A DNA stretch of 64,000 nucleotides from contig NC_049988.1 in assembly GCF_000003815.2 (NCBI RefSeq), positions 13,736,626 to 13,800,625 of the forward strand. The letters run 5' to 3'. The DNA comes from Branchiostoma floridae (lineage: Eukaryota > Chordata > Leptocardii > Amphioxiformes > Branchiostomatidae). The stretch's first letter is position 1, and each line of letters opens with the position of its first letter. Below are positions 746 to 64,000 of the stretch, piece after piece. The notes under the pieces are model-generated. The model did no database searches. It was not told the DNA's origin and saw only the letters and a list, made by a program, of their open reading frames with translations. The position numbers were made by a program, and so were the translations under genes.

Positions 746-915
746 CCTTGTAGTATTTGAGTGCTGATGTTGCCCATCTAGACATTGTTATGCAAATCGA
801 AACAATGGTCGAGACAAGGACTGTTTTCGTATCGGGGCCTTTGATACATAATCTGAATACATATAACAATAACATGCGCTTTGACCTCTGTGAAAGGGTT
901 AATTCTGTTGCCCAG

Positions 916-3324: not shown

Positions 3325-3360
<36 letters not shown>

Positions 3361-6647: not shown

Positions 6648-7215
6648 ACTGTCTTTTAACTGTTTCAAAATGTCGGCATCTGTTTGTGGCCTCCATAGTA
6701 GGCTCTCTGGGCCTTTTTGTCGTCTTCTTGTTTTGGCCCATAATACACTTTTGCTGTACACACACATAAGAGCCAGCGGCACAAACGACCCAGTACAATG
6801 ACCAGCAAAATTATGCGCCAAAAAAGGCCCAAACAGCCTGCTATGGAGGCTATTCTGTTAGGTCTACATCAGGATTGGCTTTGTAATGATAGTTTACTGA
6901 GAAGGCTTGTTAACAACGTTACACAACTTTTACACAAGTTTTCACGGGCCTTCACTGGCCCTCGGGTGTGAGTGGGCTTATGTTCAGAGAAATGAGGAAA
7001 GAATGTTATTCTGTTTCACGCCTTGTAGCTAAAATATGCTAAGGATAATATTTGTTTGAAGGGTTGTTCACTGCTGTATACGCAAGAAGGAAATAAGCTT
7101 CTAATTTAAATTCATTATAATGAAAACTAGCCATGTAGCTGAGAATTGAGTTCTGTGGTGAGTTGTGCATAATGCAGATGTTGTGACAACAGGGTGTGAC
7201 TCATACGAGGGTGCG

Positions 7216-7221
7216 AATAAA
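7216..7221 (+). promoter_or_regulatory. Candidate poly(A) signal of FAAH copy 1
   Basis: AATAAA about 570 bases after the copy 1 stop codon, with a second AATAAA about 40 bases on. Placement is plausible but unproven. Confidence 0.45.
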
Positions 7222-7280
7222 AGTTGCCTTCAATATTAAATCAAAGTGGAAGGTTCAATAAAACACCAAACACACCGAAA

Positions 7281-7575
7281 TTTCACTAGTAAGAGGAATT
7301 AAGATTGTGCCTTGTAGTGAAAGAATGTGATAGCACACCTCTATCCCATTATTGCACTAGTAATAGGCATTAAGATGGTTTCTATATTGTGATAGCACCC
7401 CTCTTTCACACCATTTCACTAGTAAGAAAAATATTGCGTCAATTAGTGAAAGAATGTAATAACACCCCTCTATGACATTATTTCACTAGTAAAAATTTTT
7501 AAAAAATGGTCTAAATTTGTGTCTGCTAGAGAAAAAATGTGATAGCGTGCCTCTATCTCATTAATTCACTAGTAT
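7281..7575. repeat. Degenerate minisatellite, ~62-83-bp unit, about four copies
   Basis: The block 'tttcactagtaa' or close variants begins at 7281, 7352, 7414, 7481 and 7564. Each copy is followed by variants of 'agaatgtgatagcac' and 'cctctat..catta'. Unit length varies from 62 to 83. It lies in the spacer between the two FAAH genes. Confidence 0.75.
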
Positions 7576-7986
7576 ATAGACAATTATTGAAATAATCGTT
7601 AAAAAACAAGTTATCGCAACTTTTCCAACTACGTCTTCTATCCAAAAATGCTATTCAGGGCTACATAAAGTCTTACTCCCAAATTGTTAATTTGGGCGAA
7701 TCAGGGCCTAATTTCCATCATAAATTAGCAAATGCTGCAATAGCCTTCTTTAGTAAGATGAGTCTTTCATAATTTGCTTTTGTCTTGCAGTCTATAGTGA
7801 AGATCCTTTTGATGGATAAGTCTAGACATTTGACTTTTAACATTTCGGTATAGTTATACAGATATCAAGTACCATCGGAATATTTCAAACACCATAATTC
7901 TTCACGGAGCATTGTGTCCTACGGACTCTTGTTTTTGTTTTCTTGGTGATGTATGTCTTATCATGTGATACACACACCCACGCACC

Positions 7987-10900
7987 ATGGATAGGGTCTA
8001 CAACATTGTAATGGACAGAATGAATAGCTCGGAATCTATAGTCGCCTACACTGCCGTGTCAGCCGGCGTCCTGAGCTGTTATGTCGGCCTGAAAGTCTAC
8101 CGTAGACATCAGGTAAAGAAGAAAGCCTTAAAGAAGAGGGAAGAAAGTCGGAAAGCCTTGCAAGACCTTCAGAGATCTGTAGCAGTTTATGGTGGGGTGG
8201 GTGTGCTTTATAATCTATTATCGTTTACCACAAAGGATTGGCCTGCTTGAATCTTTCTCATCCACCATTGCAACGAAATGTCCCTGTGCCTCGACAAGTT
8301 TAAGTGTTTGGCTAGCAACACCCCCTGTAAAGATATGCCCTGCTAATAGCACAGCAATAAAATCTGGCGGCCTATTTGCCACAAGGCATTACGAACATCC
8401 ACCATTGCATTGTACTGAAGTTTATACTAAGTTTACACCGAACATATGATTCGTAGAAAACCTGGTATATTAACACTGTAACTATAAAGGAAAGAAGGCA
8501 AACATGTAACAAAATAGCATAGTCAAACTGCACAGGTGGAACGTGCACAATCGCAAGAGGAATAACAAATCAAACTTGAATTTACTGTTTGTTCGATTAT
8601 ATGCCCGTTGTTACATTGTAAATTTCATTTTATCATACATATCACGTGAAAGCTTAATATTTGCTATCATTTACAACGTCACCTTATTTGCTATATAGTG
8701 ATGATGCATTCATAAATCGTGCTGCGTATGTGAGCTAGTCCTGAGAAAAAAGGGCCGAAAATTCCCACTATCATAATGTTATGTCTGTTGCTTTTGTTCG
8801 TCTGGTGAGGGGGCAGGGTAGTTCTTATCATTGAAAATCTGGTCTATTGTCCTCTGAACTTATACTACATCTGTATACATTATGCGTTTNNNNNNNNNNN
8901 NNNNNNNNNNNNNNNNNNNNNNNNNNNNNNNNNNNNNNNNNNNNNNNNNNNNNNNNNNNNNNNNNNNNNNNNNNNNNNNNNNNNNNNNNNNNNNNNNNNN
9001 NNNNNNNNNNNNNNNNNNNNNNNNNNNNNNNNNNNNNNNNNNNNNNNNNNNNNNNNNNNNNNNNNNATGTTGATAGGTAGGCTTCCTTGATATGTAAACA
9101 ATGGAAGGAGCAACAGAGATATGGTCAACTGAAGCTCTAGATGTTCTGTGTTCATATGGAGACATTTGGGTGTCACTGGAACAAAAATACATAAACTTTA
9201 AGTTTTAAAAGAGATCAATAGGCGAATATTAACAAAGTTTAAGCAAGGAGGGTTTTTTTTCAACCTCCTTGGTTTGAGCACGGACAGTTAACGGGGCACA
9301 CACCCTGTTCTTCCGCGTCCACTAGGATTTTCATTATACATGTAATTGGCTTCATAATACTCAAGGTTTTGTGCTCGACGTACCGCTCTGTATTTGATCG
9401 GAAAACGGGCTTCCGTTGGTAAGTATGTCTTCGCGAATCTTCATGGATCCCACCGCTGCCGCCATGTTGTGCTCGGTTGTACCCTACCAAGTAAACGACG
9501 CGTGAAGGTATCTTTGTGAGCTGACGCTAGTATATCATCATAACGTTACATATTACAATCTAGTTTGTTTGGAATACTAGTAGATATGCGTAATGACAAA
9601 GTAGTGCGGAAGTTAAAACCGCCTACCGTTATAAATAACTTGAGCATAGTCTGTGTAATACATACTCTGCTGTCCGGGGCTGTAACTGGCCCCTCCCCAC
9701 ACGGAGGAGGCCGGCCAAGTGTTGGGTGGGTTACTATAAGCGAGATTTAATCAGGCTAGCTCTAACATGTGACACAAGATTTGCTTCTTCTGCCAACATC
9801 AGTCATTCCAAACCTCCTTGGTCATTCTTGTCGCGAAATTTTAAAGTGGGGTTTGTCCTACGCAAACATTCCCAATTTAGCCTAATGTTTTTTCTTAATA
9901 GAAAATGTTGTTCCATCAAATTCACCATGGCTCGGAGGTTGAAGAAATAATGATGTTGACGAAAAAACAAAGCTCCGTTGGCCTTATAGCTCAGTCTTTC
10001 CATACCACATTTTGCTTCAGAATCATTCACTGGAAGTCACCAGACTTAAAGGTATGCAGCCTCGAGTTGAAACCGGAAATGAACTATGGTGTGTCCTCTT
10101 GAGGCATGAAACATATTTCACCACATGTGTTCTATTATATCAACACAGCCAGCAGCACAAGCAGCCAGAAGGAGGAAGATCCAGTCCCTGACCTTGACCC
10201 AGCTGACCCAGCAGCTGGGAGACGGACAGCTGTCAGCTGTACAGGTGCTGCAGGCGTTCCAGGAAAAGGTGAACAAACATTGTGAAATTTAGGCAAATTA
10301 TTCATGATACATATATGCTGCGGAAACGAATCTATAACTCCGTTATAAGAGAAAACTATCGGCACCACTGGATGTTTGTTACGATTTCTTCGGTGCTTGA
10401 GGTCTTAAGCTTTTAAGCTTAAGCTTAGCACTACCCTAGGTGGCTCAGAACACTCCTTGGCCAGCTAAAGTCTCAGTGCCACCGGCAGATCTGCCTGGAG
10501 ATTAAGGCTATCTATAATTACCCAATATGGATCTGCAAAGCGTGCCTTTTGTTCCCTGCCCCAGGCGACTGCAGTGAATGAAGAGTTGAACTGTCTGACA
10601 GAGCCGATTCCAGATGCTTTGGTTTGAGAATAGTTACTATTGTATAAAGTTACAGTTAGGTTGTCTTTGAAAATCCTGATTTTTATTCCTACTTCTGCTT
10701 AAGTAAAATTAAATAGGAAAATAAGACTACCTTCCAACAAAGTTTCCCGTTGCCATCATCATTTCTGTCATAAAAAAAGAAGATAGAGATGTAGCATTTA
10801 CAACATTAAGTGTCTAATATCAGGTCCAAGTATCCATAATGGTATCGTTAAGTATTATCTTTTTTTATTTCATAGGTGAGAGCTCAGAATTTGGATGTGG

Positions 10901-13900
10901 TGGACCAGCCATTGGGAATACTGCATGGTGTTCCTGTGTCTGTCAAGGAAAATTACAACATTAAGGTAGCAGTCTGCTCTCTACTGTACACGAGTAACAT
11001 GACTGAAACAACTAAGACTACGCAATCATATTGGTAGGCTTCACCTCCGCCTCACCATGTACATATTAGCAAGTACGCAATATCATAACCATTATGTGCA
11101 TCACAATTTGAACATCTCTCCATTTACGCACCCGTCCCCCCTTGCATTATCCAATTCTGTTACCCAGGGCATGGTGACCACCATGGGCGTGACGAAGTAT
11201 CTGGGCACACCAGCGGGTGAGGACGCTGTCATTGTCCAGGTGCTGAGGAAACAGGGGGCCGTGCCTTTTGTGAAGACCAACGTTCCACAGGGTCTAGTCA
11301 AGTAAGAAAACATTCTAGGCGATAAATAAGTTTAATCATTTACTTCTGAAACTCTTCACTACTAAACAAAGCCACTCAAGATCTCATTGATGAGTTTTTT
11401 CTTCCCATAGACGTCTATGTTATAATTCGTATTTTACATGCATATGGTTGCGTTCACAATGAAGTTACATGAAATGTCAGCAGATTTTTCATTCTATGTT
11501 GAGCAAATTTACTCTATATTATGGAAAAAAATTGCCAATGACTAGAATCCATAGGTTTGTTGTTTATAGCAATTACAAGCAACAATTAGTCAATCCCCGC
11601 AAAAGGCACTTTTTTTCCCTGCTAGTGTACAACCGCACCACTCAGAACCCAGGACTGTGTACCTACGACCTAGCGCGCGGCTGCAAAACTTTACCTGTTA
11701 ATTTCTTCAGTTACAAGCAAGCCTTCACCAATCTAACTTTTGATATCAGTTCGGATGGCTAAAAGGGAATTTCTCACCGCTAAAAACATGCGTCCATGCA
11801 GCCATTCAGTTTTTGGCTCTGATCTCTTTTACCCACTTGGAGTAATACATCAATGAGACCTCAAGTGTCTTGGGATGCACTTGAAGAAGATTGTGATGAC
11901 AGATGTCTGTTCGTCTTGAAACGTTTTAGTTTATACAAAGCAGGGAAGCAATCGCGAGAATTCTTGTTCCATAAAGATATAGTTTTAGAAAAGAAGATTT
12001 TAGGGCGGAACTTCCTACTGAGATCATGATTTTACATGCATTCCTCCCTCTCTACCACGACATAGTTTCTCATGCAGCAACCCGGTCTTTGGTACCACCG
12101 TGAACCCGCTTGACCCCACGCGGTCCCCAGGTGGGTCATCAGGAGGAGAGGCGGCCCTGATCAGAGCAGGAGGGTCGGTCCTTGGGTTCGGAACTGACGG
12201 GGCTGGAAGTGTCCGAGGCCCCGCCCATTTCTGCGGTATCTGCGGATTTAAGCCAACTGCTCTGAGGATCAGGTATAGGAAAATTGAATAAAGGAAGGCG
12301 TTGAATTCTGGACCAATGAACTATTTCATCAGTATATAGTTGCCATTCAGTTTTCAATTCTCTTTCGGTATCCTTTGAGAAACATTTTCTTCTCTTTCCT
12401 TTATTGATCCAGTCCGAATTATTTCAGTTGTAAATTTAAATGACTTACATTTTATTCTTGTGGTGAGCTTAAGTCTGGTGTGAAATCCATGTGTGGTCTC
12501 ATTTACGAGCAACTTAATACTAGTATAGTATACTACTACTAAAGCATATTTTAATATCATCAACAGGACATTCAGCTGTAGTCACCCCCTCTGCAAGAGC
12601 ATGAATAGCAGTCCTGAAACTGATTGATCTGACTTAAAATTTGCTATGAATATCTAAACGATCTTTTATTAGCAATAAGATCAAGATCAAGTCATAGTTT
12701 ATCTTGACCTTTTCCCAATGGTGCACTGCCGGTAATAGCCAGCCTACTTTATGAGATATCCATTATGTTTTTTTTTTCAGTGGCAGGGGTTTGTCGAAAA
12801 CTTATCCTGGACTGCCGGGAGGTACGTTTGACGTGTAGTAATGGTTTGTTGAGTACTGAGTACATATAATTCACATTGTCACGTCAGTAGCAACACATAT
12901 ACATAGTCAAGTGTTACCCTTCCTTATTCCTCCTCTGATCATGTCAGTCAGTTAAGCCATGATTATTATCAACACTTGCGGTGACTCTACCTCTTCTTTT
13001 CAAACATGCACTTCTCTCAGCTAAGCCATACCTTATCCGCGCTTATTCAAACACTTACTGCTAGCTTAACTTTTCTTCATAATTGTTAACTTTTGTCATT
13101 GTAGCCATAACTCATTCACACTTAAAAGACCATATTACACATCTGTTCTCATGACTGCAAGCAGAAGTGTTAAGAAGAAATATTGAACGGAAATTTCTAA
13201 CACAAAAACTGCACTTCCAGTCTTCGCGAAGAAATAAGCAATCGACGAATTCTGTGACGTCATGATATGCAGAACGCAAAGGCCCCGTTCATACTAGGAT
13301 TCGCGTATCGGGATATATCCGGATACGGTGTAAATCAGGATATATCCATTTGCGTTCATACTAGGGTCAACGAATCCGGATATGATTATTCGTGTCCAAA
13401 ATAAGATCCGGATATATCCTAATTACACCATCTGATACTGCTTGGTGAAGTCAAACTTAACTCTTAAGTAGCGTTTGCTTTGGCGTAGCATGGTAAACGA
13501 GCTGCGTCGCGCAGGTAGATGATACCAACGCCCGAAATGAACTGTAGAAAAGTAAAGAAATGCAACCAAAATGAAGGAGTGTTTGCACGGCTACAAGTAC
13601 ACGTCTTCACACCTTACTAGAAAACTTGAAAATGATCTTTATTCTTAACTGACCGTTCTAGAATGTTCTTTAGAACAGGGGTTCGTACCTGCCAGGTGCG
13701 AACACCTGCGACGCAGCCCGTTGCCTCATCCTTACCATGCTACACCAGGCAAACGCTACTTAAGAGTTAACTTTGACGTCAGATCCGACAGTGAATCCGG
13801 ATACGTGAATCCTATTGCGTTCATACCAGGGTTCACCTCGCAGCGAATCCGGATAAATCCACCTCCAGATGTGGATTCGGCGTATCCGGATATATCCCAT

Positions 13901-16900
13901 AAAGATCCGGATTCGGACCGTTCATACCAGGGTTCGCGAATCCGGATTCACCGCGAATCAGGATATATCCTGATACGCGAATCCTAGTATGAACGGGGTG
14001 AAAATTTGTGGTGAGAGTATCATAAGTTGCAGAAAGTTCAAGCGTTCCATCTGCATACGTGACGTGACAAAGGCGGTGGATTGCTCATTCCTTCACAAAG
14101 ACTAGAGGTGGACAATCTAACAATTGTGAATGTCGATGTTTTGTTGCAACAGTTCAATTATGATTCAGAATTATCAATACCATCACAGATTAACTTTCAC
14201 GTGTTTGTGGGGTACACTCAGTTTAACGTTGCCAGTGTTTAGCTTGGTTGGTTTAGACATGCATGCACTAGATACCCTTTACTCTATCAATGACTCTAGA
14301 TGATCTTTCAAGCAAAGTTGTGAATTGTTTGTTCAGCACCAAGGACAGGTCTTACACATGTATTAGGCAATTGTTCGACTTGGTTGGATCAGCACTACAT
14401 ACACTAGATAAACTTTACTCTAATAATGATTCTAGATCTTATGCATTCCTCTCAGTTATTTCAAGTCCTGGTCTACTGGCCAGAGATGTTGACAGTTTAG
14501 CCCTGGGTCTGAAGGCTCTGCTAGTACCGGACATGTTCCAACTGGACCCGCGGGTGGTACCAATACCATTCCAACAAGAGGTGGGACATGTGAAGACAAA
14601 TACATCGCTACCGTGAATAAAATACAGACATTACTTTCGACCGTGTCGAGTGCTATCCATCACTCTTCTTCAGCGTCGCTAGAGGAATAGTGATGGATGT
14701 TGCTCGAAGTACCCGGAACCAATCTTCTTATGTTATCCAGTTGTAGAGATTGAATTGTCTTTGATATTGTTTTCGTGGATTTCTAACCTTCATGAACATA
14801 TTTCTATAACATACATTCTCATAATTCCACCAGGTGCCATAATACCGCCAACTCAAAAACCGTTAGTATGGAGGTCTTTCCAAGATTGTCTTGATCACCG
14901 AATGTTAAATATCCTAAATGTAATACAATTCAGATATTTAGGTGTTGAAGACAATCTAGAGAAGGCCTCTAAAACAACGTTTTTTGAGGTGGCAGTATAA
15001 TGACACCTGGTGGAATTATGAGAATGTATGTTAGACCATTTTGGCTCTGTTGTCTAGGTTACCATCTAATCTAATATCACATTTAAAAGGCCGTCCTGGC
15101 TGTTATAATAATGATTGATTATTTTACAAAAATATCATATTATGTGTACAAAGTCATTGGCGATACTGTATATTTATGTATGTATATCTATCTACAATAT
15201 ATATCTACTCCCTCTCTCTTTCTCTCTCTCTGCAGATATATGCATATCCATGTGAGGATAGTATTCTATTGCCAGATGTCATGTCTTATATCTTCTCACA
15301 GACATATGAAGATAACCAGCCCATGCGGATAGGATACTTCACCACCCTGCCCTGCTGCCCTCCCACCCCGTCCATGGGGAGGGCTGTCATCATGGCAAAG
15401 GAAGCCTTGGAGAAAGCTGGCCACACGGTAATGTTCAGTTTTCCGTAATCAATTTCATCAGGTTGATAATTACTCACAGAGTAAAGTTCTTTTTAAGACA
15501 AACAGAGTAATACTCACATACAACGTTTCGACACCATAATCAGGGTTAGAATGATGTAGGTTGCGCTTGAGCAGCGAGAATGCCGTTCCAAACATGACTC
15601 AGTTTGTATACCCCCCCTCATTTCTGTTCATGTTGTACGCTGGATGTGAGTACTACTTTGTTTGTGATTACAAGAATTTTACTGTACGAATGTTCAGTTT
15701 TGCTTTCATTTTGGTGACTTGTGTTTTGGACATTTTGGTGAGTGAGATTTCAAGTAGGACTTCAATTGTGTTCCAGCTGGTCGCCTTTGATCCACCGGAT
15801 GACTCACGAGCCCTTATCGACTTGACCACGAGGCTCATGACTGCTGATAACGGAGAGACAGTCTCTAAAAAGTGGCTGTGAGTGTGTGTCTTAAACTACC
15901 ACGTATACTCTAATTCTCTGGGTCAGTACAGGTAAACCTATATCTTCAACTACCAGTGACATCTTCTGAAGATGTGGCTCGGTAGTAATTCTCCGTCCAT
16001 GTCCTTGTTACACATTGGTATGACCAGGCACATGTGGTCATAATATCATATAGCCCTATTCAGAAGGGGGGTTGCTTATGAGACCTGCACCAACTTTCAT
16101 GTCGCATAACGCCAGAATGGCTAAAATTGAGTTGGCAACAATTTCGCAAAATTTGAAAAAATTCCATTTTTCGTGTTGCCATGGCAACCGTTGGCATTTT
16201 AGACGAATATCACTAATTTCTGTTCTAACAATGTATTTTTCATCTTTTTAATAAATAGAGTCTTATGAAATCTAGAATATTTTTCATGATTAAATATGCA
16301 TAAATTATGGTTCTTGATCTTTAGTTGGTCAAACAAAGGAGCATAACGGGAGACCACCTGGTCAAACCTAAATATTAAAATGGGATTCACGATTTTCTCA
16401 GTGTGTATGTGCAAGAAATACATTATGAGTGATATGTCAAAAATAAAGGGTCCTAGGGTCATAAAAAATTGCAAAACAAGCATAGCCATTGCAATGCAAA
16501 TCAAGACAGTGCTTGACAAACAATTCTTGCCTGCAATCTAGGGGCATTTGCCTTTCACACATCCCCCACAGTGCATTTCGCAGTGCACGCAGACTTAGAA
16601 TCGTGAAACCTTGTAATAGATACATTTGACCAGGAGGTCTCCGAAGCTCCATATATGCTCTTTGGAATCGTAATTTCCTTATCAATGTGTAATCATCATG
16701 AAAATAACGTTTCAGGAAAGATGAGGTGATACATGAATATCTGGAAAAGCAAGTCCCGTTATTGAAAATGCCTCACTTTTTGCGCAAGATTCAAGGCTTC
16801 CTTCTCAAGCCTTTCGTAAGTATCTACATCAATTGTCTTTTATTGTGGTCTATTGCACAACTCTATTCCAAAGGTATGTTTAGCTAAAGATGTTCACAGT

Positions 16901-51441: not shown

Positions 51442-52483
51442 CGAGATCCAGTCAAAGCCTAGACAATTTGCAGCAGCTAAACCGCAAAAAGACCTTGACA
51501 TGTAGTCTGTAGACAACATGATCGCTGAGCTTTCTTAATTTAGAAAGGGCACAGCAGTTATGTAGTCGTACCTGCAATTAGCAAAGCCACGGGGAGGCAG
51601 ATAATGTCAAGAGTAAGTGGGAATGTGTACTTTTAACTAGATCAGGGGCTGCATGATTACCAGAATTTTCTGGCTCTCAGTACTGGTGTAGCTTTTTTTG
51701 TGTCATGAACACGTACAAATGTATCTATGTAGCTAGGTCAAAAATCATATTTTCATGTCCAGAAATTTGTTTCTGGTACTGGTGTAGCTTTTTCTGTGTA
51801 TTGCCAACACATATCTATACCTAGGTCTATAAATTTATATTTTCAAATTTCAAATTTGCTATCTTGGCATCCTTAAGTTTATGCCTGAACTGTCCCCAAT
51901 ATGTGAAGATGTGGGTGGTAATGTGATAGTGAACTGTCCCCTCTGCCATTTCACTTGTGCGTCATATCTATAACTGTCGGACCCACACCATATGCTCCCA
52001 AGGTCAGTCAAGGATGTTTAGCGGAGGCTAGAGGTGAAGTTCAGATAGGCGAGAGGACAGCTTGGTTGTAATGGACAGACATTCCTCCTGGTTGTCCATC
52101 TTTCTGGGTTAGATGTTGGAGGTATGCTTGCACGCGTAGCTGTTTCGGCCTCCAGCAAGTAGTCGCCAATAGCCTTTATATGTAAGAAACTTGATCTAAT
52201 TTTTCCTTGTGATTTGTTATACTGGCTCTGTACACCAGTGTGGGGGTGGGGTTGGGATAAAAATACCCCGACATATTTTGTATAAGACAAAGATCTTTGG
52301 CAGAGCCTTTTCAAGTGGCCGCACATCGCCATGTTTAGAGGAAGGTTTTCTTATTTGTATTTGTTGACAGTTTGTGTTCAGGTTTGGAATGTACAATGGT
52401 GGTTAACGTTATGACCATGATAGTTGATGTAGGTGTTGAATTTTGTATTTTCAGACAGTAGATATTAGTTCTAAGGACACAAG

Positions 52484-55400
52484 ATGGCTGCTGATGACTA
52501 CTACGAGATTCTAGGCGTCCCTAGAAGTGCTACGCAAGCAGATATCAAAAAAGCGTAAGTGAAAAAATTCCTTCTATTCATTTTGTGAAAAAATCCATGA
52601 TCTAGAAAGGAACTTTCATCTGTGTCTTATTATATTACAGAAAATCTTTTGAGTAATATCTATGTCCATAATATGAAATTGTTTTATTTATTGTGGACAT
52701 GATATGAAATTTAGAAATCCTCATTTGTATATTATTGATGATAACCGCAAATATTTTGAGATTATCGCCATAATATGAAATGATATATTGTTTTAGTCCA
52801 ATATAGATAAAGTTACCAATAATCTGCATTTAATGAATTATACGGTAAGCGTACATATATATCTATACTCTTGCATTGGACATTTTGCATTGGTAACATG
52901 TTCTTTTGCATTTGGGATATATATTATAACCTCGCTTATCTTTTAACTATCACAATGATGTTGCTTGACTCGAGAAATTTGTCTAGACATGTTTATAATC
53001 ACCAGTAAATTTGTCCCTCTGTCCCAGACACGTGTATAAATTATTCATTGATATCATTACAGAACACATATCTACATTTAAATGTGCTACACATATATCT
53101 GCCCTAGATGTCATGTCCCTTTGTTATACATTTGTATAACCAGTGTACAAAATACTTTTCTGAGCCGGGTTGAACAGCGTGCAACCTGGGGCAAAATCTA
53201 GGTTGCACAACTGAATTTCAAGTTGCACATTTCACTAAAATTTCTGAAAAAAGGTACAATAGATATTCCCTTTACTATCATGTTACTTATAAACATGTTT
53301 GTTTCAAACTAAAAATCAAGTACAAAGTACAGTGACAACAAAATCCAGTTCTGAGGCTCAAAATCTAAGTTGCACCCTGTGCAACCTGAGTTTAGAAGTT
53401 AGTTGCACCAAGCAAAAAGTGGTTGCAATGTGCAAGTGTGCAAGTGGGTATTTTGCACGCTGATAACATACAATTTGTCTGCAAGAACAATCTGTATCTG
53501 TTGCATACAGTCTTAGAATCATACTGAAGATGTTGTCAGTTGAGTATGTTTTCTTACAAATCTATGTTGTGTCTGTTCTCCTGGAAGAAAATTAGAAAGT
53601 CTAAGTTGCATTTGGTGATGACTTATTCTTTTTTCTTACTAACAATTCACTCATCAAATCTTTGAATATCATATATTAAACCTCCCTTCTCATGATACTG
53701 CTTAGTCTATCTTGAAAGAGTACAGAATATGCAGTTGTCCAACCCTACTGGAGTTTCTGTCATTAGAATCTAAGACTCATTAGTCTGAATTACACGTGTA
53801 TGTGAAGATATTAAGACTGTCCTCTTTACAACTTGTGACCCATTTTCTCATCATCTTTCTTCAATGCACAGGTATAGAAAACAGGCATTGAAATGGCATC
53901 CAGACAAAAACCCAGACAACAAGGAAAACGCTGAGAAAAAATTCAAGGAAATCGCAGAAGCATATGAGGTGCTGTCTGACAGTGAGTATTGTCACAAGGT
54001 TTATTTTTATGGCTTAACACTCCATTGCACCAAACCTGTGTTGCTTGATTGTATGCCAATTACTGAAGGTTAGTTACGGTTTTATGTGTTCTGCTTGGAT
54101 TGGCGGAATGATGAAAAATGTCATAGCACTTTAAAGTTACAGCCTGCCATTCATTTATATTGTTACCTTGTAATAATGTATGATTTGGAGTTTCAAAGCA
54201 ATGAAAGACAATCTCTTGTGATTCATTTTCATGTACAAATTTATGATATTATGAATAAAGCTGTTAATCTTTCTGTTTGCATATGTGGACTTCGATTAGA
54301 CTCAAACATTACGACAAGGCTGTTTGGATGTGTGTACTAGTAATGATGTCATAGTTCTTCTACAGTGGTGATGTAGGACACATTTTAGAATCAAAATGTG
54401 ATTCTAAATTTGTTTTCCAAGTGCGCTGGTGAATATTAATAAGCTTGTAATCTTTCTGTTTGCAAAAGTGAACTTTGAATACACTCAAACAGTGTAACAA
54501 GACTGTTAGCATGTGTGAAATGGTGTCATAGTTCTTCTACAGAGGAGATACATTTAAGAATTCGAGTATGATTCCTTTTTCAGAACAAAAGCGAGACATC
54601 TATGACAGATATGGGAAGGATGGGATCACAGGGAACACTGGGGGAGGCAGCAGGGGAGGGAGAGGAGGAGGAGGTTTGTACCCAGTCTCCTTCTTCACAT
54701 GGCATCATTTCTAGAGAAACTGGCTCAGGGAATACTTCATTACTATGTGTAATATCAAGAAATCACCATTTTTGCTGAAGGTTTACTTGTATCTAAAGAT
54801 TGTATACCGATCTATTTGCTAGAATACCCATCACTTACCATTACAAGTATTATCTAGCGAGGTAATGCTTTGGTTGGGGAGGTAAAAGGCAGTGGAAAAA
54901 GAGGCCCTGTTTACCAATACAGTGCCCTAGACACAGTGGGTAACAACCTACTGCATAAAACAGCTATGGGACTATCTTTAACTTTTTACCTAGCTACTGA
55001 ACAGTTTTGAGCATGGAAATAAAAGCTTTCTATTCTGTCATTTAGTTGTGGCCATCTGGATCCTTTCCCATGGATGGCCCTGAGTTCGATCCCAGGGTCG
55101 GCTCACGCAACTCTGGCATAATGTAAGGGATTGCATTCATCTTTCGTACGGGACATAAGATGGGGGTCCCATGTTCAAGGAGGTACCTCGAGCACATAGA
55201 ACAGCTTTATTACTCAGATTGGGTATTTACTTGCTGCAATGATGCACCAAGATGAATTAAGACTGTTTCATAAATACATTATTCACAATACAGCATAGTC
55301 TTTTAACCAATACAACATGGTCTTTTGAACAGCGAACTTCAACTTCGAGGACTTCGAAGCGGCCCCAGGCGGGTCCTTCCACCACTTCACCTTCAGAGAT

Positions 55401-58400
55401 CCCGAGGAAGTCTTCAGAGAGTTTTTCGGAGGTGCTGATCCCTTCGCTGACTTCTTCAACGACGACTTCTTTGGAGGAGGTGGTGGTAAGTACGATTAAG
55501 AAGTTTTCAAGATTTCCTCTATCTTAAGGATAGCATGAGACAACTTCAGTATTTATGAAAATGTCACAAGTTTTACATATCTTACATATGAAAGTTGTCT
55601 GTCTGTTGGGTTGTGGAGATTCTGAATGACACTAGAGGAATATTTCACTTTTGCAACAGTGCAACTTCTTCGGAGGAGGTGGTGGTAAGTACGATCAAGA
55701 AGTCTTCAAGTTGTCCTATTTCTTAAGGATAGCATGAGACAACTTCAGTATCTATGAAAATGTCACAAGTTTTACATATCTTACATGGAAAGTGGGCTGT
55801 AAGTAGACTGAAAGTGGACTGTAGTTATGTCTTTTGTACATTTGTAGACAAGAGGCACAGTGTTGGCTCCCTGGGGCCTGCCCATTACATGTATGATATA
55901 GCCAGGCCTGTGCTGGAGTGATAACAGTTTTTCCCACAGGCAGAAGCATAGTTATAGCCATAACAGGGGCTGGCAGGTTTGTAAATGGTACAAATGTATG
56001 ATTCATTATCATCTAGTCTGTGCAATTTGGCTGTGTTTTGTGTTCACCCTAACATGCATGTCTGCTGGAGACAGAAGAAATTATGCATATTCTTCAGAGC
56101 TAGAAATACTCACCTACAACCTGAAATACTCAACTTGCAACTTGCAAAACATTTTTTTTTTAAATGCAGGAAAAATATTCATTTTTGGGAAGGAAAAATG
56201 TGAATAATGTTACGCACTTTGGCAAAATAATACTCAATCTTATGGAAAAAAGAAATTAAGCATTTCTTGCACGGACATGTTAAACAGGCAAAAAAAAGGA
56301 AAAAAGAATTTCCGGTTCAGATTTCACCACATGAATGCATGGTGGTTGGATTGGAAGTTACGTAAACCATGGGGTTAGACCATACCACTGTGAGACGGGT
56401 GTGAAAGGTGTTGTACATGTACATTGTGAGAAGGGTGTTCCTGCATGCAGTGACAGTTCTCTCCCCCTATCCAGACAAGACACAGGGCTCAATGTTGTTC
56501 AAGATCTTTGTATGGATCCAACAAAAAACAAAATTGAATTTAAGATTGCCAGAAAGACTGAATGACTCTGACTCTGAGTCATTGAAACGTTTTCAAACAA
56601 TCATGGTAAGACATGGAATTACCATAAATGAGCAAAAATTCAGATTTAGCCCGGTTGTCTTGTCGTCTTCCCCTTGTTTCAAGATTTTCACTTTGTGTTG
56701 CAATATTCCATGGCTTCTATGGCCGTCCATGTGAACTTAACAACTGCTTCTTTCCTCCTATATTGTGCCAGTTTCTTCTGTATGCAATTTTCTTGCCTGT
56801 CATTCATTGTTTTTATTGCTGTTTTTTATGTTGCTGTATGTTTCAGCTCCCACACGAGGCTATGCCTATGCCTCTCCATTCTCACTCTTTGGAGGTATAT
56901 GCTTCAGCACTAGACTTGCTTGTTTCAGACTGCTTGTCACAGTAGTAAATCTTACAGTTACACATGAATAACAAACAAAAGGTTTGGTTTGGGTAATACC
57001 CAAACCTAAGGTTCAAGCCAGCATCCGTCCATCCATCGGTCAAAGAATCATCCTTTGACAGAATTTTGTCACTGGGGTGGACAAAATTTTTTCCCATTGA
57101 AGTTCCGTCTGACATGTAAAAATATTACTTGAACCAAGGTGAATCTACCAGCAAAATTTGCCCCTAAAAATACAAAACAATGTAAATGAAATGGCAATTC
57201 AGAAAGTCTAAATTTCAAAATTTTCCGGGGGAACACACCCCTGGACACCCCTAGGATCGTTGCGCCTTCAACAGTATTTCATCCAAAATCCAGGGGATGG
57301 AAAAAAATTCAGGCTGGCTGGAACATTGCTCAAACCCATTGGTATTTTACATACCAAGAAGCATGTATTTGTGCAGTGGATAGTAGAGGAATAGTTGACT
57401 TTTAGACCATAAACATGTAATGTTTAGTAAATTTGAATCAAGCTTCGGAATGAAAATTTGCAAGAAATATTGATTGTGTATTTCTAATTTTGGAATGAAT
57501 TACAACAGTTTGGGGGATAATTCCTCTCTTGTGTGAGCATCACGGGGAGAATTGTAAGTGTTTGGTCAACAGTTGTTGCATCCGGCATGTCGTTAATTGT
57601 TTTTTGGACACAATCCAAAGTAGAACAGTCCCTGCAGTGTTGGAACACCCTCACTTGTGTGTGTGATGCCTGTGTTCAGTTCTCTAAGGTGACTGTTTGG
57701 AATCCATCCATCTGCATGTCATCAGTTGTTACACAACAACTTAACAAAAGGAATGGATAGTGCATCAGCTCAAAGAATCTAAATTCAGAAAACGATTATT
57801 AGAATACTTATTGTTGTATTAAACAGATACTGTTAATGTTATGCATAGGAGGGAACATTGCTGCAGATTATCTGGAAAATCTGAAGAAATTTGATCTATA
57901 TAACTGGATAAAAGAAGTGGGGATTTACTTTCGGACATAAAGAAATAGAACTTAAGACTATTTCTGCAGACTAGCATAAGAAAATAAGAAGATTTTATGA
58001 CTATGATGTAAATGATGGTAAATTTGATAAATAAGCTAGGAACCAATCTCAAAGTTTTTGTTATAGATAAAAAGGGATTAACCTATGAGAGCACTGTTAT
58101 CACTGAATGTAATACATGTACTTATAGTCCAGTACACAAATATCTAACTAGCTGTCTCTTTGTTATAATTATCTTTGCTAATCTAGATTTCTTCCTTCCA
58201 TCTTTTGCTATGCCTTGTTACCCCTCTTAATTTCTTATTCTTAATTACCTTTGTTTGTATGAATTTCTCTCTGACCCTATCCCTTCCCAGCCCCATGTCA
58301 CTGACATGCCTGTATGTGTGTGTGTGTTGGCTGTGTTTAGCGCCCGGTTTCGGGGGTAGACACAGCGGCGGTCGCCACATGGCTCGTCGCGCCGACCCCA

Positions 58401-61400
58401 ACCCTGACTCCGGTCCCGAGGAACGGTGGGACTGCCCGGCGTGCACCTTCAATAATCACGAGCTCATGGACTCCTGCGAAATGTGTAGCGAGCCTCGGCC
58501 GCGCAAACGGGGTTAGTATGGCTTGGCATAGTGAACGCTTAAGCTGTACGCCATTCATGAAACAAAAACACTCTGAATTTTCCTTTACAGCTTGATTTGA
58601 ATTATTTTATGACTAGAGTTTCAATAAAGTTTTGGTGCATTTGTTATGCATTATTGAATTGAGTATAGATTGTAATTTTGTAAAATAGATTTCAATTGAT
58701 ATGGAATTCTACAGATTTTATGATTTGTAAAATATAGTAACTTATGTTTCAAATTTTCTGGTGTCCTCTGTTAGACTACATGTAGCAGTTCTAATGTTAA
58801 TAAAAAAGACATACAGAATACAGGTTTTGACTTGTGAGTTTCTGATCTACATGTATAAACAAAAGGTATTTGGTTGAAGCCTTCCAAGTTGGGCTTGGAA
58901 ATATACTAAAAATACCTCCAAACCATGGTGAACTCCAACTCATGAGAAAAGATTAAATAAACTGTAGGGCTTAGAATATTTGCAGAAAATTGAATTATGA
59001 TTGCAGAATAAGTCAAATGAGCAACTTTCAATTTTTGAGATTTATAAACCAGGCTTAGAATTAAGAGTCTTATATTGCTGGTAGCAGAAACAAAACTTCT
59101 GTTCCCTGAATTGTACATTTACATTTAAAGGTACAAAACTGGTTATTCAATCAGTGTAACTGTGCATGACTGAACTGTCTGTTCAGTTGTCTCTGACGTC
59201 TAAAAGTACGCCCCCAACACTGGTTATGGTAGAGAACACAGACACGTTAAACTGACTGTCTTTGTCTTTGCCATATATAAGAATGATTGATGATCAGTGA
59301 TTGCCATATAAAAATGATGGATGACCAGTGGTAAGATCCTTGTTTAGATGTACAAAATTATGATTAAAAATGATATAACCCAGCCTAGAAATGTGCTAGA
59401 CTGATGCTAGCATTGGTTTCCTTAAGGTGGTATCTCACTGCCCTTGGGGCCCTTGTGCGGCACTGCAGGGTTCGTTCACTGCAGCACTGTTGTAATTTCT
59501 TGCGTAGTACGTAAAGATATGACTTAGAAGACATAAAAATACACAAAGCATAAGAAAATTCGTCTTTTATCTCTGAAATTCGTTAAGTAATCTTTCGAAC
59601 CCTGCAGTGTCGCACCGGTGCCCCAAGTGCAGTGAGATACCACCTTGCGTAAGCAAATTCAGTCTTAAAAATTGAATGATTTGCCCCTACTCTTGTGTGT
59701 ATGATAACGCTCTGCTCACAAGAGAACCTGTTCACCGCTGCAGGTCGCAGCTCTCGCACCTCGCGGTCCCGTCACGCTCACGGCGCCGGCAGCACGACGC
59801 TCTTCCAGGACAACTTCCCAGGATTCTCCTTCAACTTCGGCTTCGGCGGTAGGAGCGACCCATTTGCGGACGGCGGGTAGGTCCAAGTCTGGTCAGGGGC
59901 ACTTGTGCCAGACATGAAGGGGGGTGGAGAAAGCGCTAATCTTGTGAGCTAAAATTAACCTGTATCTTTGAGTACAAGTAAAATTTTATTTCAATTTTCA
60001 TTAAAAGAGACTGTATATAGGCCTACATTGTGACTTCTGACTGCTAGAATGACAGTTTTTCCAGAAAAACAAATAGTTTGACAATGACAATGGCAATGAT
60101 TCTTTGCTTAGTGTTTCCTGTCTTCTGTCTCTTATTCCTTGCTGTTGAGTTTTGCTTGAGCCCTCCCCTTCCAGTGTGTCAGTACAAGTTGTCCCCTGCC
60201 AGTGTGACTCTAACTCTGCATGTGTGGAACTGGGGGGTGTGTTGGCATGTTGGCACAGCGGTGTGAGCAGAGGCATGGTGTATCAGAGGGTCAGAGCCTT
60301 CCCACAAATCGGAAAAGTGAGACGAAAATTGATAGTCATGTTTCTAAAAAGTGAAACAGTTGCAAAATACCGGTTAGTAAAAGGTAAGTGAGCTAGCACT
60401 GTCATTAGGGATGATGTCCTATAAAGACTATTTGTAGGTGTTTCAGTTGTTTAGGTTTTTAAGGCTTTGATACTTTTGATGGTATCAAGAACTGTGAAAA
60501 ACTTGGTTGGTAGTTTGGAAGTCTTTTTGGAAGACTGCCATCTTTAGGCCCTGGAGCAATTTTTTTTTCCAAAGTGGGAAAAATAGGGCCACCAATGCCA
60601 GGAAGCAACAAATAAAATTGGTGTGGCCAACTGTGAAAAAAAAGAATTTTAGAATCACAACAACACTTACACAGTCACAAACATTAAAAAGGTACAGTGT
60701 ACACCAATTGATATACATGTCATTGGCTTTCATTACTTTTAATGGTATTCACAGCGTTATACAATGCACACAAAAAAACAGTGGCAATTTTGAAATCTTT
60801 TTGGAAGACTGCCATCTGTAGGCCCTGGAGCTCTGATAACCCCCCTCCCCAGTTCCCCTCTCTAACCCTCCTCTTGCACCTGTTTGCCTGTTACGTGCTT
60901 CACTTCTGTTCTCCTCCAGATATCCCACACAGAGACATAACTCAAAACTACCGCCCAGAGTCCCGCCCAAGCCTAAAAAGTACCGCTCCCTGTGCTATCA
61001 CACCCCTCCAGTTAAGCGGAGACAACAACAGACGTTTGTTTCCAATATGGTTATTCCGTCGGTAGAAAACTCGTCCATCGAGAGACCGCAAACGTGGTCG
61101 ACATTATACCACATGCCATCTTGCTCATCGCTTAGGTCAGTGTGTGCAGGAAGAAATTGTTTTGTGTGACAAAAACAACAATCAGAATGTCTTGAGCAAG
61201 TAGTGTGTTGAACATGAAATGCATGGTTTTAAACCAGTTGCTTCTACATGAATCAGAAGCTTGGAATCTCCACCAAGTCTCCTCCTTGACCTATACAGTA
61301 GCATTTGTCATATGATGTTTGTCCAATACTTTGATAACACACATAATTCTATCATTCTCTTTGATAGGGAAAAAGTGATGATAGTGATTGCGGTGAAATG

Positions 61401-63854
61401 TACATGATGTGATAATGAACGAAATCATGATCAGTTGCTTGCATACACATGTACATTTAGCTGCCTGCCATGGTTTGCAATTTATCTTAACTTTAATGCA
61501 AGTATGTGCATTGTTCCATCAATTTCATTCTTGAACTCATACAATATGTATCACTGAAGATGACTTGTACATGTCTGGTTTTCTAACAATCAAAACAGGG
61601 ATCTCCCTAGCTAGAAAGTGTTATGACTTTGTAGAGCAAATAGTCTTTTTTGTGATCTCTTTTGATTCAACAGGGATATAATCATACTATGGTTTTAGTC
61701 TGATGATAATACATCAACATTGTTTATTCTTTGGGGAGGCCTCTATTTGTTTGTTTGTTACTGTAAAGCTGTTGTTCCTTTGCTACCCTTTCCTGTCATT
61801 GTTGTCAGCTGTGTTGTCTTAACAGGCTTTATAGCTATTGTAAGCTTTTTAACTATATTACTCATGTACCTATAGGGAAGTTCTTCAAACATAAACTTTT
61901 CCATTGCGCTGATTATTAAACTTTGACTATTACATCCAAATACTCGGAAAGAAAAAGATCATAGATTAAATATCAAAATTTTCCCTGTCTTAAGTTTTGG
62001 AACCTTTTAGTCAGAATTTACAGATATCTGTATCTGAAGGAGTTCATTATCAGCTGAATTTTTAAAAAAAACCTGTGTCCTAACTTTGATTGATATTTTA
62101 TGGTATGAACACACAATGGTACATGTACATAACATATTGTCAATGAGAATACAGGGAATGATCTGATTAGAACAGGAATTTTCTAATTGTGTCTTCATTA
62201 AAATCATCTCATCAACAAACTATTCACCATCACTGTGGCATGAGATGACGGTATGTGTACCTGACCCAGCTTGACCTGTCATGGTGTGGTGCATGTCCTA
62301 ACGGGAAGTAAGGAGTTCACCCTGTTCCTCACAGCTGTGGTGCCTTTGTCTGTCATCCATACGTCTCTCTGTGTTTCTCTCCTCTCAGTTTTGACTTCAA
62401 CCACCACTTCATGCAGGCAGCTCCACAGCCATACGCCAGACCAGGGGGGTGAGTGTGAGCCCCCGATATGTGACAGCACCAGCGTACATCACTATATGTG
62501 TTCCATGCTCACAAACTAGCTTACTAGCCATAGCTACCAACGCATAGCGTCCATTGCAGTCTTCGAACGGGGCTGTTTTTTTGGGGGGGAGGGGGGCTGG
62601 CTCATGATTTTCAACGTTTTAACGGGGCGAAACTCCCTTCCATGGCCAACTACCTTCTTCAGCAAACTCCCTTTCCGGCACAAGAGAACCTAGCCAATGT
62701 TGAAAATCGTGAACCCGTGCTCCCCCACAAAAAAACAGCCCTGTTCTAAGATTGCAATGGAGGCAAACCAACATACACGATTGTGCACCATGCATACTCG
62801 CTTACTAGACCAGTGCATTAGCTTTAAGCACTAGCAGTTAGACTGCTTAGGATGGTATCCAAAACTGTAGTTTTTGCAGAAAGGATAAGAGAGACTTGGC
62901 AGCTATAGTAGGTTTGGATACCAGGCTATAGACTGCTTGCTTTACATTTTAGAGGTCATGGGTTCAAATCCAGGCCAGGTCATACCAAAGAAGGTCTCTG
63001 CTTGGCACTCAATCAGCTCTTATGGGATAGTTTGGTACGTACATGTACCGGTAGTTGAACACAGTGCTACCAGTGGACTAGCCCCCTGCTGTAGTGTGTG
63101 GACAACTGTGAGGCCCAAGGAAATGAAGATGAGCACCATCCAAAATACAAAAAGGAACTTACTAGAACACATGTACAAACTAGCTTGCTAGCCTGTCACA
63201 ACATACTACAAACAGAGTGGAAGCCTCACAGATATTACCAGCACAAAAGAGTACCCCAATGTAGCCCCCCAGAGTAGTTATTTCTTTCAGGTACTGGATA
63301 TTTGTCAATTTGTCTAATGTATACTTGCAAGTTTGTCAAGGACCCAAGAAGTAATATCCAGAAATGCATATATCAAGTATGGAAAGCTATAAGAGAATAG
63401 TGTTGTAAAATCATTCTTTATTCAAAGATTAAAAAATAGACATTTTTATAAAGACATTTTTTGAAAATCAAATGTTGAAAATTGAGACATGTCTCCACAG
63501 CACTGTTATACTTCTTGTGTTCCAGTGTTTGTGCATTTCACTTTCTAGCTCACTCCACATACACATTTTTGTATTAGTAGTCTAGATCTGCCTGTTGCAT
63601 GATACTAGTGCATGTATATGTATTTGGAAAGAGCTTACTGGCTTGTTGAGAGCAAAATCCACAGAATGCTTGGGTCTCCAACAAGCGTTCCCATGTTGCT
63701 TGGGTCTCTAACAGATGTTTCCATGTGCTGTGGTTTCCAGGTTCACATCTTTCTCCAGCTCATCGTTTGGGGGCAGCGGCAACCGGGGAGGGAACTTCAA
63801 GTCAACCTCAACGTCCACTAAGTACGTCAATGGGAGGAAGGTCACGACAAGAAG
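52484..63854 (+). CDS. DNAJB6: DNAJB6/DNAJB2-like J-domain co-chaperone with NZF zinc finger (3' partial)
   Basis: HSP70 co-chaperone. Exons: 52484-52554, 53872-53981, 54584-54673, 55333-55485, 56847-56894, 58341-58511, 59744-59876, (60920-61135 candidate), 62389-62448, 63741-63854; at least one more lies to the right. All phases join. Start: 'acaagATGG', good context, at the head of the J domain. Domains: J domain residues about 4-70 ([33 protein letters not shown]) with intact HPD; Gly/Arg linker; G/F region ([18 protein letters not shown]), typical of DNAJB2/6/7/8; a 16-codon exon; NZF finger; SR-rich then Gly/Phe segment ([12 protein letters not shown]); and the Ser/Thr segment [31 protein letters not shown], which in DNAJB6 binds aggregation-prone clients. 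The zinc finger is not part of vertebrate DNAJB6 or DNAJB2. Likely heat-inducible (element at 47204). Confidence 0.92.
53141..53462. mobile_element. DNA-transposon fragment with CAG(T/C)GT(A/G)CAAAATAC ends
   Basis: Left CAGTGTACAAAATAC and the complement of the right end CAGCGTGCAAAATACCC form short terminal inverted repeats. The inner part repeats 'gttgcac' words in both directions. CAG ends suggest a hAT-type non-autonomous element; no clean target duplication is seen. In DNAJ intron. Confidence 0.55.
55040..55220 (+). mobile_element. Possible tRNA-derived SINE fragment
   Basis: B-box-like GAGTTCGATCCCAGGG followed by a SINE-like body ('aagatgggggtcccatgttcaaggaggt'). In DNAJ intron. The 5' tRNA part is degenerate. 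Confidence 0.45.
55662..55790 (+). repeat. Local duplication of the end of DNAJ exon 4 and its intron start
   Basis: Repeats 55464-55590 at a distance of 199 bases: the G-rich exon end (ttcttyggaggaggtggtg), the splice donor gtaagtacgat and about 100 bases of intron. A good donor is therefore duplicated inside the intron. Confidence 0.8.
58341..58511 (+). CDS. NZF (RanBP2-type) zinc-finger exon of the DNAJ gene
   Basis: Single exon, 171 bases, phase 1 at both ends, between acceptor 'gtgtttag' and donor G|gttag. It encodes the finger [20 protein letters not shown], which fits W-x-C-x2-C-x3-N-x6-C-x2-C exactly. The Thr-Phe pair after the second Cys and the Met before the fourth Cys are the residues by which Npl4-type NZF domains grip ubiquitin. 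Preceded by an Arg/Asp/Pro spacer and followed by Arg/Lys. The exon is clearly CG-richer than its introns, as other exons here. Listed apart because it sets this protein apart from its vertebrate relatives. Confidence 0.88.
59424..59646. mobile_element. Foldback MITE, ~51-bp terminal inverted repeats
   Basis: Left AAGGTGGTATCTCACTGCCC to about 59474, right about 59596-59646 its complement with few mismatches (shared 'actgcagggttcg'). The middle is AT-rich. Ends 98 bases before DNAJ exon 59744-59876. Confidence 0.85.
60520..60833 (+). repeat. Direct repeat 'gtctttttggaagactgcca...ggccctggagc'
   Basis: A block of about 38 bases at 60520-60556 recurs at 60796-60833 with two or three differences. 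In DNAJ intron just upstream of the candidate exon. Confidence 0.7.
60920..61135 (+). CDS. Candidate alternative exon of the DNAJ gene (phase 2-2)
   Basis: A pyrimidine-rich tract and acceptor 'ctcctccag' precede it, and donor AG|gtcagt follows. The 216 bases are open in exactly the frame set by exon 59744-59876 and end in phase 2, matching exon 62389-62448, so inclusion or skipping keeps the reading frame. The 72 codons are basic and proline-rich ([20 protein letters not shown], then KRRQQQTF), with PxxP motifs that could bind SH3 domains. Not known from DNAJB6; real expression is unproven. Confidence 0.5.
62389..62448 (+). CDS. Small DNAJ exon (60 bases, phase 2-2)
   Basis: Acceptor 'ctcctctcag' and donor 'gtgagt' are strong. 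Encodes [20 protein letters not shown] in the frame of its neighbours. Symmetric, so it may be alternatively spliced. Confidence 0.7.
62550..62761. mobile_element. MITE with ~33-bp terminal inverted repeats
   Basis: Left TCCATTGCAGTCTTCGAACG and the complement of the right end TCCATTGCAATCTTAGAACA differ at few positions, both leading into 'gggctgtttttttg'. Inner phrases 'gattttcaacgtt' and 'caatgttgaaaatc' are also inverted. In DNAJ intron. Confidence 0.8.
62825..63150 (+). mobile_element. tRNA-derived SINE split by a hairpin MITE
   Basis: After the MITE, 'agactgcttgctttacattttagaggtcatGGGTTCAAATCC' gives an A-box region and a perfect B box, followed by a SINE body ('cttggcactcaatcagc', 'cctgctgtagtgtgtggacaactgtg', 'gatgagcacca'). 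The tRNA-like head is interrupted at 62849 by the MITE, whose target duplication reuses SINE bases. Confidence 0.65.
62849..62930. mobile_element. Hairpin MITE nested in a SINE
   Basis: Left 'aggatggtatccaaa' and right 'tttggataccaggctata' are inverted. GACTGCTT flanks both sides (62841-62848 and 62931-62938), an 8-bp duplication (9 bp if the shared A is counted). Ends are like those of 360-477. Confidence 0.75.
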
Positions 63855-64000
63855 GTAGGGATTTATTTACTTTTGTACATATATCACTCTACGGTTACCT
63901 ATTCTAAAGCTGCTGTAATAGTCACGTTTTAGCAAGTTTTGACCTGATAAGATATTGGGCAATTCAAATTGTGGTCTAACAGTATAAAACACATACTGTA

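What the first reader, a model, noticed from the sequence alone, without database searches (positions are those of the whole stretch)
58341..58511. J-domain co-chaperone with a shuffled-in ubiquitin-binding NZF finger
Seen: a symmetric phase 1-1 exon with good splice sites encodes a perfect W-x-C-x2-C-x3-N-x6-C-x2-C finger, with Thr-Phe and Met at the ubiquitin-contact positions, between the G/F region and the Ser/Thr client-binding region of a DNAJB6-like protein. All preceding G/F exons are also phase 1-1, so this exon could enter by shuffling without frame damage. Known: DNAJB2 reads ubiquitinated clients through UIMs, while DNAJB6 has no ubiquitin reader. Inference: this lineage evolved, or kept, an independent zinc-finger link between HSP40 client holding and ubiquitin.
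Basis: partly seen in the sequence, partly recalled or inferred. Interest (0 to 1): 0.87.

Follow-up and report, generated by a model that had tools for sequence, protein, structure and literature searches.

The report
Amphioxus-like DNAJB2/6 chaperone with ubiquitin-reading finger
A protein-folding helper of an amphioxus-like animal appears to carry a small zinc finger of the kind that grips ubiquitin, which its human relatives DNAJB6 and DNAJB2 are not known to have; RNA and cross-species evidence is still missing.

Summary
Window 58341-58511 is a 171-nt, phase 1-1 exon-like stretch encoding an intact Npl4-type zinc finger (NZF), in frame inside a complete DNAJB2/DNAJB6-class gene whose last exon lies just past the window. 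PDB sequence matches are led by TAB2, TAB3 and HOIL-1L fingers. It has the published ubiquitin-contact residues, Thr-Phe and Met, as in NPL4, and His and Glu at two TAB2-type positions. Exon and flanks matched only themselves in the 513-Mb genome.

My reading: a DNAJB2/6-class co-chaperone that can tether ubiquitinated clients through an NZF, where vertebrate DNAJB2 uses UIMs. Only one gene of this class was found in the genome, so "DNAJB6" alone is too narrow. Not shown: splicing, conservation in any other species, ubiquitin binding. "Shuffled-in" is compatible but unproven. An in-frame stop right after the exon and an AATAAA 111 nt on leave an alternative terminal exon open. A second small phase 1-1 NZF exon sits beside a FANCM-like gene.

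The parts
52484..52554 (+). first coding exon: ATG and start of the J domain
   Evidence: whole model gives PF00226 at 2e-29
53872..53981 (+). J-domain exon with the HPD motif
54584..54673 (+). end of J domain and Gly-rich linker, phase 1-1
55333..55485 (+). G/F-region exon ([16 protein letters not shown]...), phase 1-1
   Evidence: aligned to human DNAJB6
56847..56894 (+). small G/F-type exon [16 protein letters not shown], phase 1-1; no independent homology evidence
58341..58511 (+). the finding: NZF exon, phase 1-1
58427..58498 (+). NZF core [24 protein letters not shown]
58623..58628 (+). AATAAA downstream of the exon; possible alternative 3' end (AATAAA occurs 9 times in 14.5 kb here, so may be chance)
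59744..59876 (+). next exon, [17 protein letters not shown]... with F-rich stretch, phase 1 to 2
60920..61135 (+). possible cassette exon, phase 2-2, proline-rich and basic, no family match; membership uncertain
62389..62448 (+). possible cassette exon, phase 2-2, [20 protein letters not shown]; membership uncertain
63741..63854 (+). Ser-rich region and start of the C-terminal domain ([19 protein letters not shown]); the last exon is outside the window, 298-403 bases past its end (locus L005), ending LERLTYN and stop

Best explanation
The exon is a genuine coding exon, probably a cassette, of the animal's single DNAJB2/6-class gene. The protein would be J domain, G/F region, NZF finger, Ser/Thr-rich region and DNAJB6-type C-terminal domain. 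The finger would bind the Ile44 patch of ubiquitin through Thr35, Phe36 and Met47, and so hold ubiquitinated clients beside the client-binding Ser/Thr region while the J domain calls in Hsp70. Shown here: the open frame, phases, position, finger motif and contact residues. Inferred: splicing, zinc binding, ubiquitin binding and the link to client sorting. Because it joins NPL4's strong distal site (Thr, Phe, Met) to TAB2-type His39 and Glu46, I predict that it binds mono-ubiquitin, as NPL4 does, and tolerates several chain types, as NPL4 and the published TAB2 Q686M mutant do.
For: Complete gene model from ATG to one terminal stop, with the NZF exon in or out (423, 331, 315 and 274 residues; earlier). 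Human DNAJB6 structures match both ends of the protein. Finger: the nine best PDB sequences are TAB2, TAB3 and HOIL-1L (that 2crc is HOIL-1L is recall). Contact residues as in NPL4 T590/F591/M602 and TAB2 E685/H678 (PMC4386640 passages; PMC6220233 passage). AlphaFold2 model of the exon: 26 of 56 residues at pLDDT 90 or more, blocks 31-50 at 95-96; 0.4-0.8 A to TAB2, HOIP and most TRABID finger chains over 25-27 columns. Finger motif 0 of 300 in simulated windows. Exon and flanks single match in the genome; no N in 52001-64000.
Against: No transcript and no orthologue could be examined. Splice sites are at the low end for this gene. Pfam score is below its cut-off. NPL4's own finger (1.4e-3) ranks behind a Ran-binding Nup153 finger (9e-4) in the PDB comparison. 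The codon score is high (34.1; 56 of 123,282 same-length windows reach it) but another + frame of the same exon scores 39.1, so it reflects GC content and not frame; its training frames were unverified. Foldseek cannot tell ubiquitin-binding from Ran-binding fingers: the top hit is a RanBP2 finger and none reaches E 0.001. Model pTM is 0.47 and about half of the exon is low-confidence. An in-frame stop follows at once if the donor is not used.
Confidence: 0.68

Rival explanations
1. Alternative terminal exon. The donor is skipped, translation stops one codon on (GGT TAG), and the transcript ends after the AATAAA at 58623. This gives a short J domain + G/F + NZF isoform that lacks the Ser/Thr and C-terminal domain, so a ubiquitin adaptor without the DNAJB6-type oligomerising part.
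For: Stop directly after the exon and AATAAA with 111 nt between, followed by a T- and G-rich stretch; donor has T at +3. Recalled: human DNAJB6 makes long and short isoforms by alternative 3' ends.
Against: The donor joins in frame to the next exon. AATAAA occurs 9 times in 14.5 kb here, so one within 200 nt is not remarkable.
Confidence: 0.12
2. The exon is spliced in but the finger binds something other than ubiquitin, such as Ran-GDP, RNA or a protein partner.
For: Same fold as RanBP2/Nup153 and ZRANB2 fingers; a Nup153 finger matches at 9e-4 by sequence.
Against: It has Thr-Phe and Met at the published ubiquitin contacts, whereas fingers of the same genome that I read as Nup153/RanBP2-like have Met-Val, Met-Ile or Leu-Val there (L009, L010, L012, L014, L024). 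PDB sequence matches rank ubiquitin binders first.
Confidence: 0.1
3. Relic or cryptic exon that is rarely or never included.
For: Splice sites tied lowest in the gene; no conservation data.
Against: Every zinc and contact position is intact and the frame is open in a stretch at 67% GC, like the next exon (66%), within intron at about 30-33% GC.
Confidence: 0.07
4. A separate small gene nested in the intron.
For: An in-frame ATG (M13 of the exon peptide) and the stop just after the exon would give a 45-residue protein (read).
Against: The stretch begins with G/F-like sequence ([10 protein letters not shown]) in phase with the host gene, behind an acceptor.
Confidence: 0.03

Closest known systems
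DNAJB6 (human; PDB 6u3r, 7jsq)
   Same: J domain, G/F region and C-terminal domain; the window protein ends shortly after that domain, as DNAJB6 does in the alignment
   Different: The window protein has an NZF between G/F and Ser/Thr regions.
DNAJB2 / HSJ1 (human; PDB 2lgw)
   Same: Same scaffold; couples polyubiquitinated clients to degradation (PMC10586202, passages)
   Different: Reads ubiquitin by two UIMs; the window model has no UIM match at E 0.1 or below
NZF domains of NPL4, TAB2/TAB3, HOIL-1L
   Same: Finger fold and ubiquitin-contact residues
   Different: Those sit in a p97 cofactor, kinase adaptors and a ligase subunit, not in a J-domain protein (recall, and PMC7056813's table of NZF examples)

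Membership tests
DNAJB2/6-class J-domain proteins | N-terminal J domain with HPD | tested here: met
   PF00226 at 2e-29; KWHPDKN
DNAJB2/6-class J-domain proteins | G/F region and DNAJB6-type C-terminal domain | tested here: met
   6u3r two stretches; 7jsq E 1.7e-16 over residues 219-271 of the 274-residue form
DNAJB6 orthologue in the strict sense | closer to DNAJB6 than to DNAJB2 in a tree | not tested
   Both match; no tree was built
DNAJB2 (HSJ1) | UIMs | tested here: not met
   No UIM match at E 0.1 or below
NZF (Npl4 zinc finger) | W-x-C-x2-C ... N ... C-x2-C zinc finger | tested here: met
   Pfam PF00641 at E 4.4e-5 but below its cut-off
NZF (Npl4 zinc finger) | Thr-Phe plus hydrophobic residue of the ubiquitin patch | tested here: met
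   T35, F36, M47; definition from PMC4386640 and PMC12805371 passages
NZF (Npl4 zinc finger) | binds ubiquitin | not testable with these tools
   needs purified protein

The most novel reading that the evidence does not exclude
An NZF ubiquitin reader was part of the ancestral, unduplicated DNAJB2/6 gene of chordates (or older) and was lost in vertebrates, where one daughter, DNAJB2, took up UIMs instead: the same chaperone scaffold has been fitted with a ubiquitin reader twice, by unrelated domains at different places.
Probability: 0.22. Interest if true: 0.75.

Novelty: new variant of a known kind. Interest (0 to 1): 0.56.

Why it matters
DNAJB6 and DNAJB2 are known suppressors of protein aggregation (recall; for DNAJB2 and TDP-43 also a passage of PMC10586202). 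If this architecture is real, a direct link between client holding and ubiquitin is not a private feature of DNAJB2, and amphioxus would offer a natural fusion for asking whether a ubiquitin reader steers a DNAJB6-type chaperone from holding towards degradation. It is also a clear test case for reader swapping on a fixed scaffold.

Tried and rejected
Relatives: a viral-contig scan with the 331-residue model had 8 pattern stretches and no relative; a prokaryote-genome scan with the exon had 199 and no relative. Both use a few 8-residue patterns and find close relatives only. A J-domain scan of viral contigs gave 50 loci; 0 of 50 held the finger motif or the C-terminal motif that I searched. These are viral and prokaryote collections, so this says nothing about other animals. 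A motif scan of 45 G000 J-domain loci (L036-L080, about 1.5 kb each side, several of them overlapping) found the finger only in L067, which is this gene. Loci were held for 30 of the 77 J-domain rows and 15 of the 43 rows, and long introns could hide a finger, so a second such gene is not excluded.

Recent insertion by a mobile element: the exon with 641 nt before and 789 nt after matched only itself (the tool skips simple and very common words). Donor search: no close source among nine finger cores. A second DNAJB2/6 gene: two other J-domain genes that I looked at read as DNAJB1-like (L068) and DNAJC5-like (L070), by eye.

Codon score dropped as evidence for frame. Foldseek dropped as evidence for ubiquitin over Ran.

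Literature, all ten searches used: DNAJB6 + NZF 0 papers; 'J-domain protein' + 'RanBP2-type zinc finger' 0; DNAJB6 + RanBP2 + zinc finger 2 (listing only); DNAJB6 + Branchiostoma 1, where Branchiostoma occurs once, in a fluorescent-protein reference (PMC12248113, passages); DnaJ + zf-RanBP 4 (listing only); DnaJ + NZF 9, two of them seen as passages (PMC7056813, where DNAJB2 stands under UIM, and PMC3940038, where DNAJB2a stands in a table of RBR-ligase interactors). PMC10511788 was seen as passages and gave nothing used. The library lacks most subscription papers, so absence in print is not shown, and genome annotations of amphioxus may already carry this domain pair.

Full report
WHAT IS THERE. 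The gene starts at 52484 and runs on the + strand past the window end. I placed ten coding exons in the window, two of them (60920-61135, 62389-62448) uncertain, and the last one just beyond it. Spliced in four combinations the model reads from ATG to a single terminal stop: 423 residues with everything, 331 without the two uncertain exons, 315 without the 56847 exon as well, and 274 without the NZF exon and the two uncertain ones (built up). The last exon was read from the next stretch of the same contig, locus L005. The 274-residue form matches human DNAJB6 in the PDB (6u3r, E 5e-58), with one stretch over the J domain and G/F region and one over the C-terminal domain (7jsq, E 1.7e-16), and human DNAJB2's J domain (2lgw, E 5e-38).

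In the genome, 43 matches to that query were listed. Those reaching beyond query residue 97 lie only at this locus; the others stay within residues 2-96, the J-domain end. The search scores only its best candidates, so a diverged second copy could be missed. I read this as one gene of the DNAJB2/6 class, the state before the vertebrate duplications. No tree was built.

THE EXON. 58341-58511 is 171 nt long and phase 1-1, as are the three exons before it. It encodes a short G/F-like lead ([10 protein letters not shown]), a charged linker and the finger. The strict finger motif was found once in the window and 0 times in 300 simulated windows. Pfam's RanBP-type model matches at E 4.4e-5 but below its curated cut-off; for comparison a finger of the same genome that I read as TAB-like, 25.2 bits, is below it too, while two others, 32.3 and 30.1 bits, are above. 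The PDB comparison lists TAB2, HOIL-1L and TAB3 fingers first, E 7.3e-6 to 2.4e-4, then a Nup153 finger at 9e-4, HOIP at 9.4e-4 and NPL4 at 1.4e-3.

THE CONTACT RESIDUES. PMC4386640 (passages) states that in most NZFs distal ubiquitin is held by a patch on a T-F motif plus a further hydrophobic residue: NPL4 T590, F591, M602; TAB2 T674, F675, Q686; and that TAB2 E685 touches proximal ubiquitin. In the exon peptide the alignment puts Thr35, Phe36 and Met47 at the first three and Glu46 at the last. His39 falls at TAB2 H678, one of four positions whose TRABID counterparts, when mutated, abolished or weakened binding (PMC6220233, one passage). So the finger joins an NPL4-like distal site to TAB2-like proximal residues. 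NPL4's site binds mono-ubiquitin and is non-selective, and TAB2 with Q686M binds K63 chains more and also K29 and K33 chains; hence my prediction of a fairly promiscuous, mono-ubiquitin-competent reader. In the same genome, fingers that I read as Nup153/RanBP2-like carry Met-Val, Met-Ile or Leu-Val at the Thr-Phe place.

STRUCTURE. AlphaFold2 on the exon with nine fingers of the same genome as alignment gave mean pLDDT 77.4 and pTM 0.47; 26 of 56 residues are at 90 or more and the first 20 or so are at about 60. Foldseek placed the finger on RanBP2, TRABID, Nup153, TAB2 and HOIL-1L fingers alike, none below E 0.001. This supports the fold and not the ligand.

IS IT PART OF THE GENE. For: frame, phases, GC content, contiguity without N, single match in the genome. 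Against or open: splice sites at the low end for this gene (donor 6 of 9 consensus positions, shared with two others of ten), a stop right after the donor if unspliced, and AATAAA 111 nt on. The codon score did not settle the frame. No transcript could be searched.

ORIGIN. 'Shuffled-in' remains a hypothesis. Two other fingers of the genome have a phase-1 acceptor before them, by my reading: the TAB-like one (L002), and one on a small phase 1-1 exon of 93 nt next to a FANCM-like gene (domain match). Such exons are easy to move. But no close donor is visible among the nine cores compared: identities to the window finger are 15 of 24 (L003), 14 (TAB-like), 13 (FANCM neighbour and L015), and 8 to 12 for the other five. 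The 27-row list holds further fingers that I did not compare residue by residue.

FUNCTION. [quoted passage not shown] The same paper's legend calls residues 218-277 of DNAJB2a not homologous to DNAJB6. The window protein ends about where DNAJB6 does and shows no UIM. The simplest functional reading is that its finger does for this protein what the UIMs do for DNAJB2. Works like DNAJB2 in this one respect: inferred. Is a DNAJB2: no.

VERDICT. Real and well formed in the sequence, well matched to a ubiquitin reader, and an unusual pairing of domains. Lacking RNA and orthologues, it is a good hypothesis and not yet a demonstrated protein.

Noticed in passing
L008:4885-4977 + (G000:C1 about 20480384-20480476): A small phase 1-1 exon with an NZF finger (WSCSTCTFLNHALLSACEMCDSPK, Thr-Phe and Met present; Pfam 32.3 bits, over cut-off) follows open frames with two parts of the FANCM-MHF binding domain (PF16783): possibly a FANCM with a ubiquitin-reading finger. 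Human FANCM has none that I recall. That the exon belongs to that gene was not tested.
   Followed up: partly
L063:1-1857 - and similar rows on many contigs: A dispersed family of open frames with a DnaJ match: 32 of the 77 rows (my count) are full-length matches of 201-204 nt at 34.7-43.3 bits, 25 of them in frames of 450-1324 residues. L063, the only one read, also has a weak GDSL-esterase match (below cut-off), as in ORF1 of some CR1-type LINEs (recalled); its J domain lacks HPD.
   Followed up: partly
55465-55587 and 55664-55786: Tandem duplication (123 nt, 93%) of the end of the G/F exon with its donor and intron start; leaves a decoy donor 199 nt downstream.
   Followed up: no
59412-59474 and 59596-59658: Inverted repeat of 63 nt (84%) in the intron after the NZF exon, MITE-like.
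   Followed up: no
60920-61135: Phase 2-2 candidate exon of 72 codons, proline-rich ([10 protein letters not shown]) and basic, with no Pfam match; possible cassette.
   Followed up: no
about 750-15900: Two similar stretches of coding fragments resembling fatty-acid amide hydrolase ([10 protein letters not shown]), apparently a tandem pair; by eye from the frame list only.
   Followed up: no
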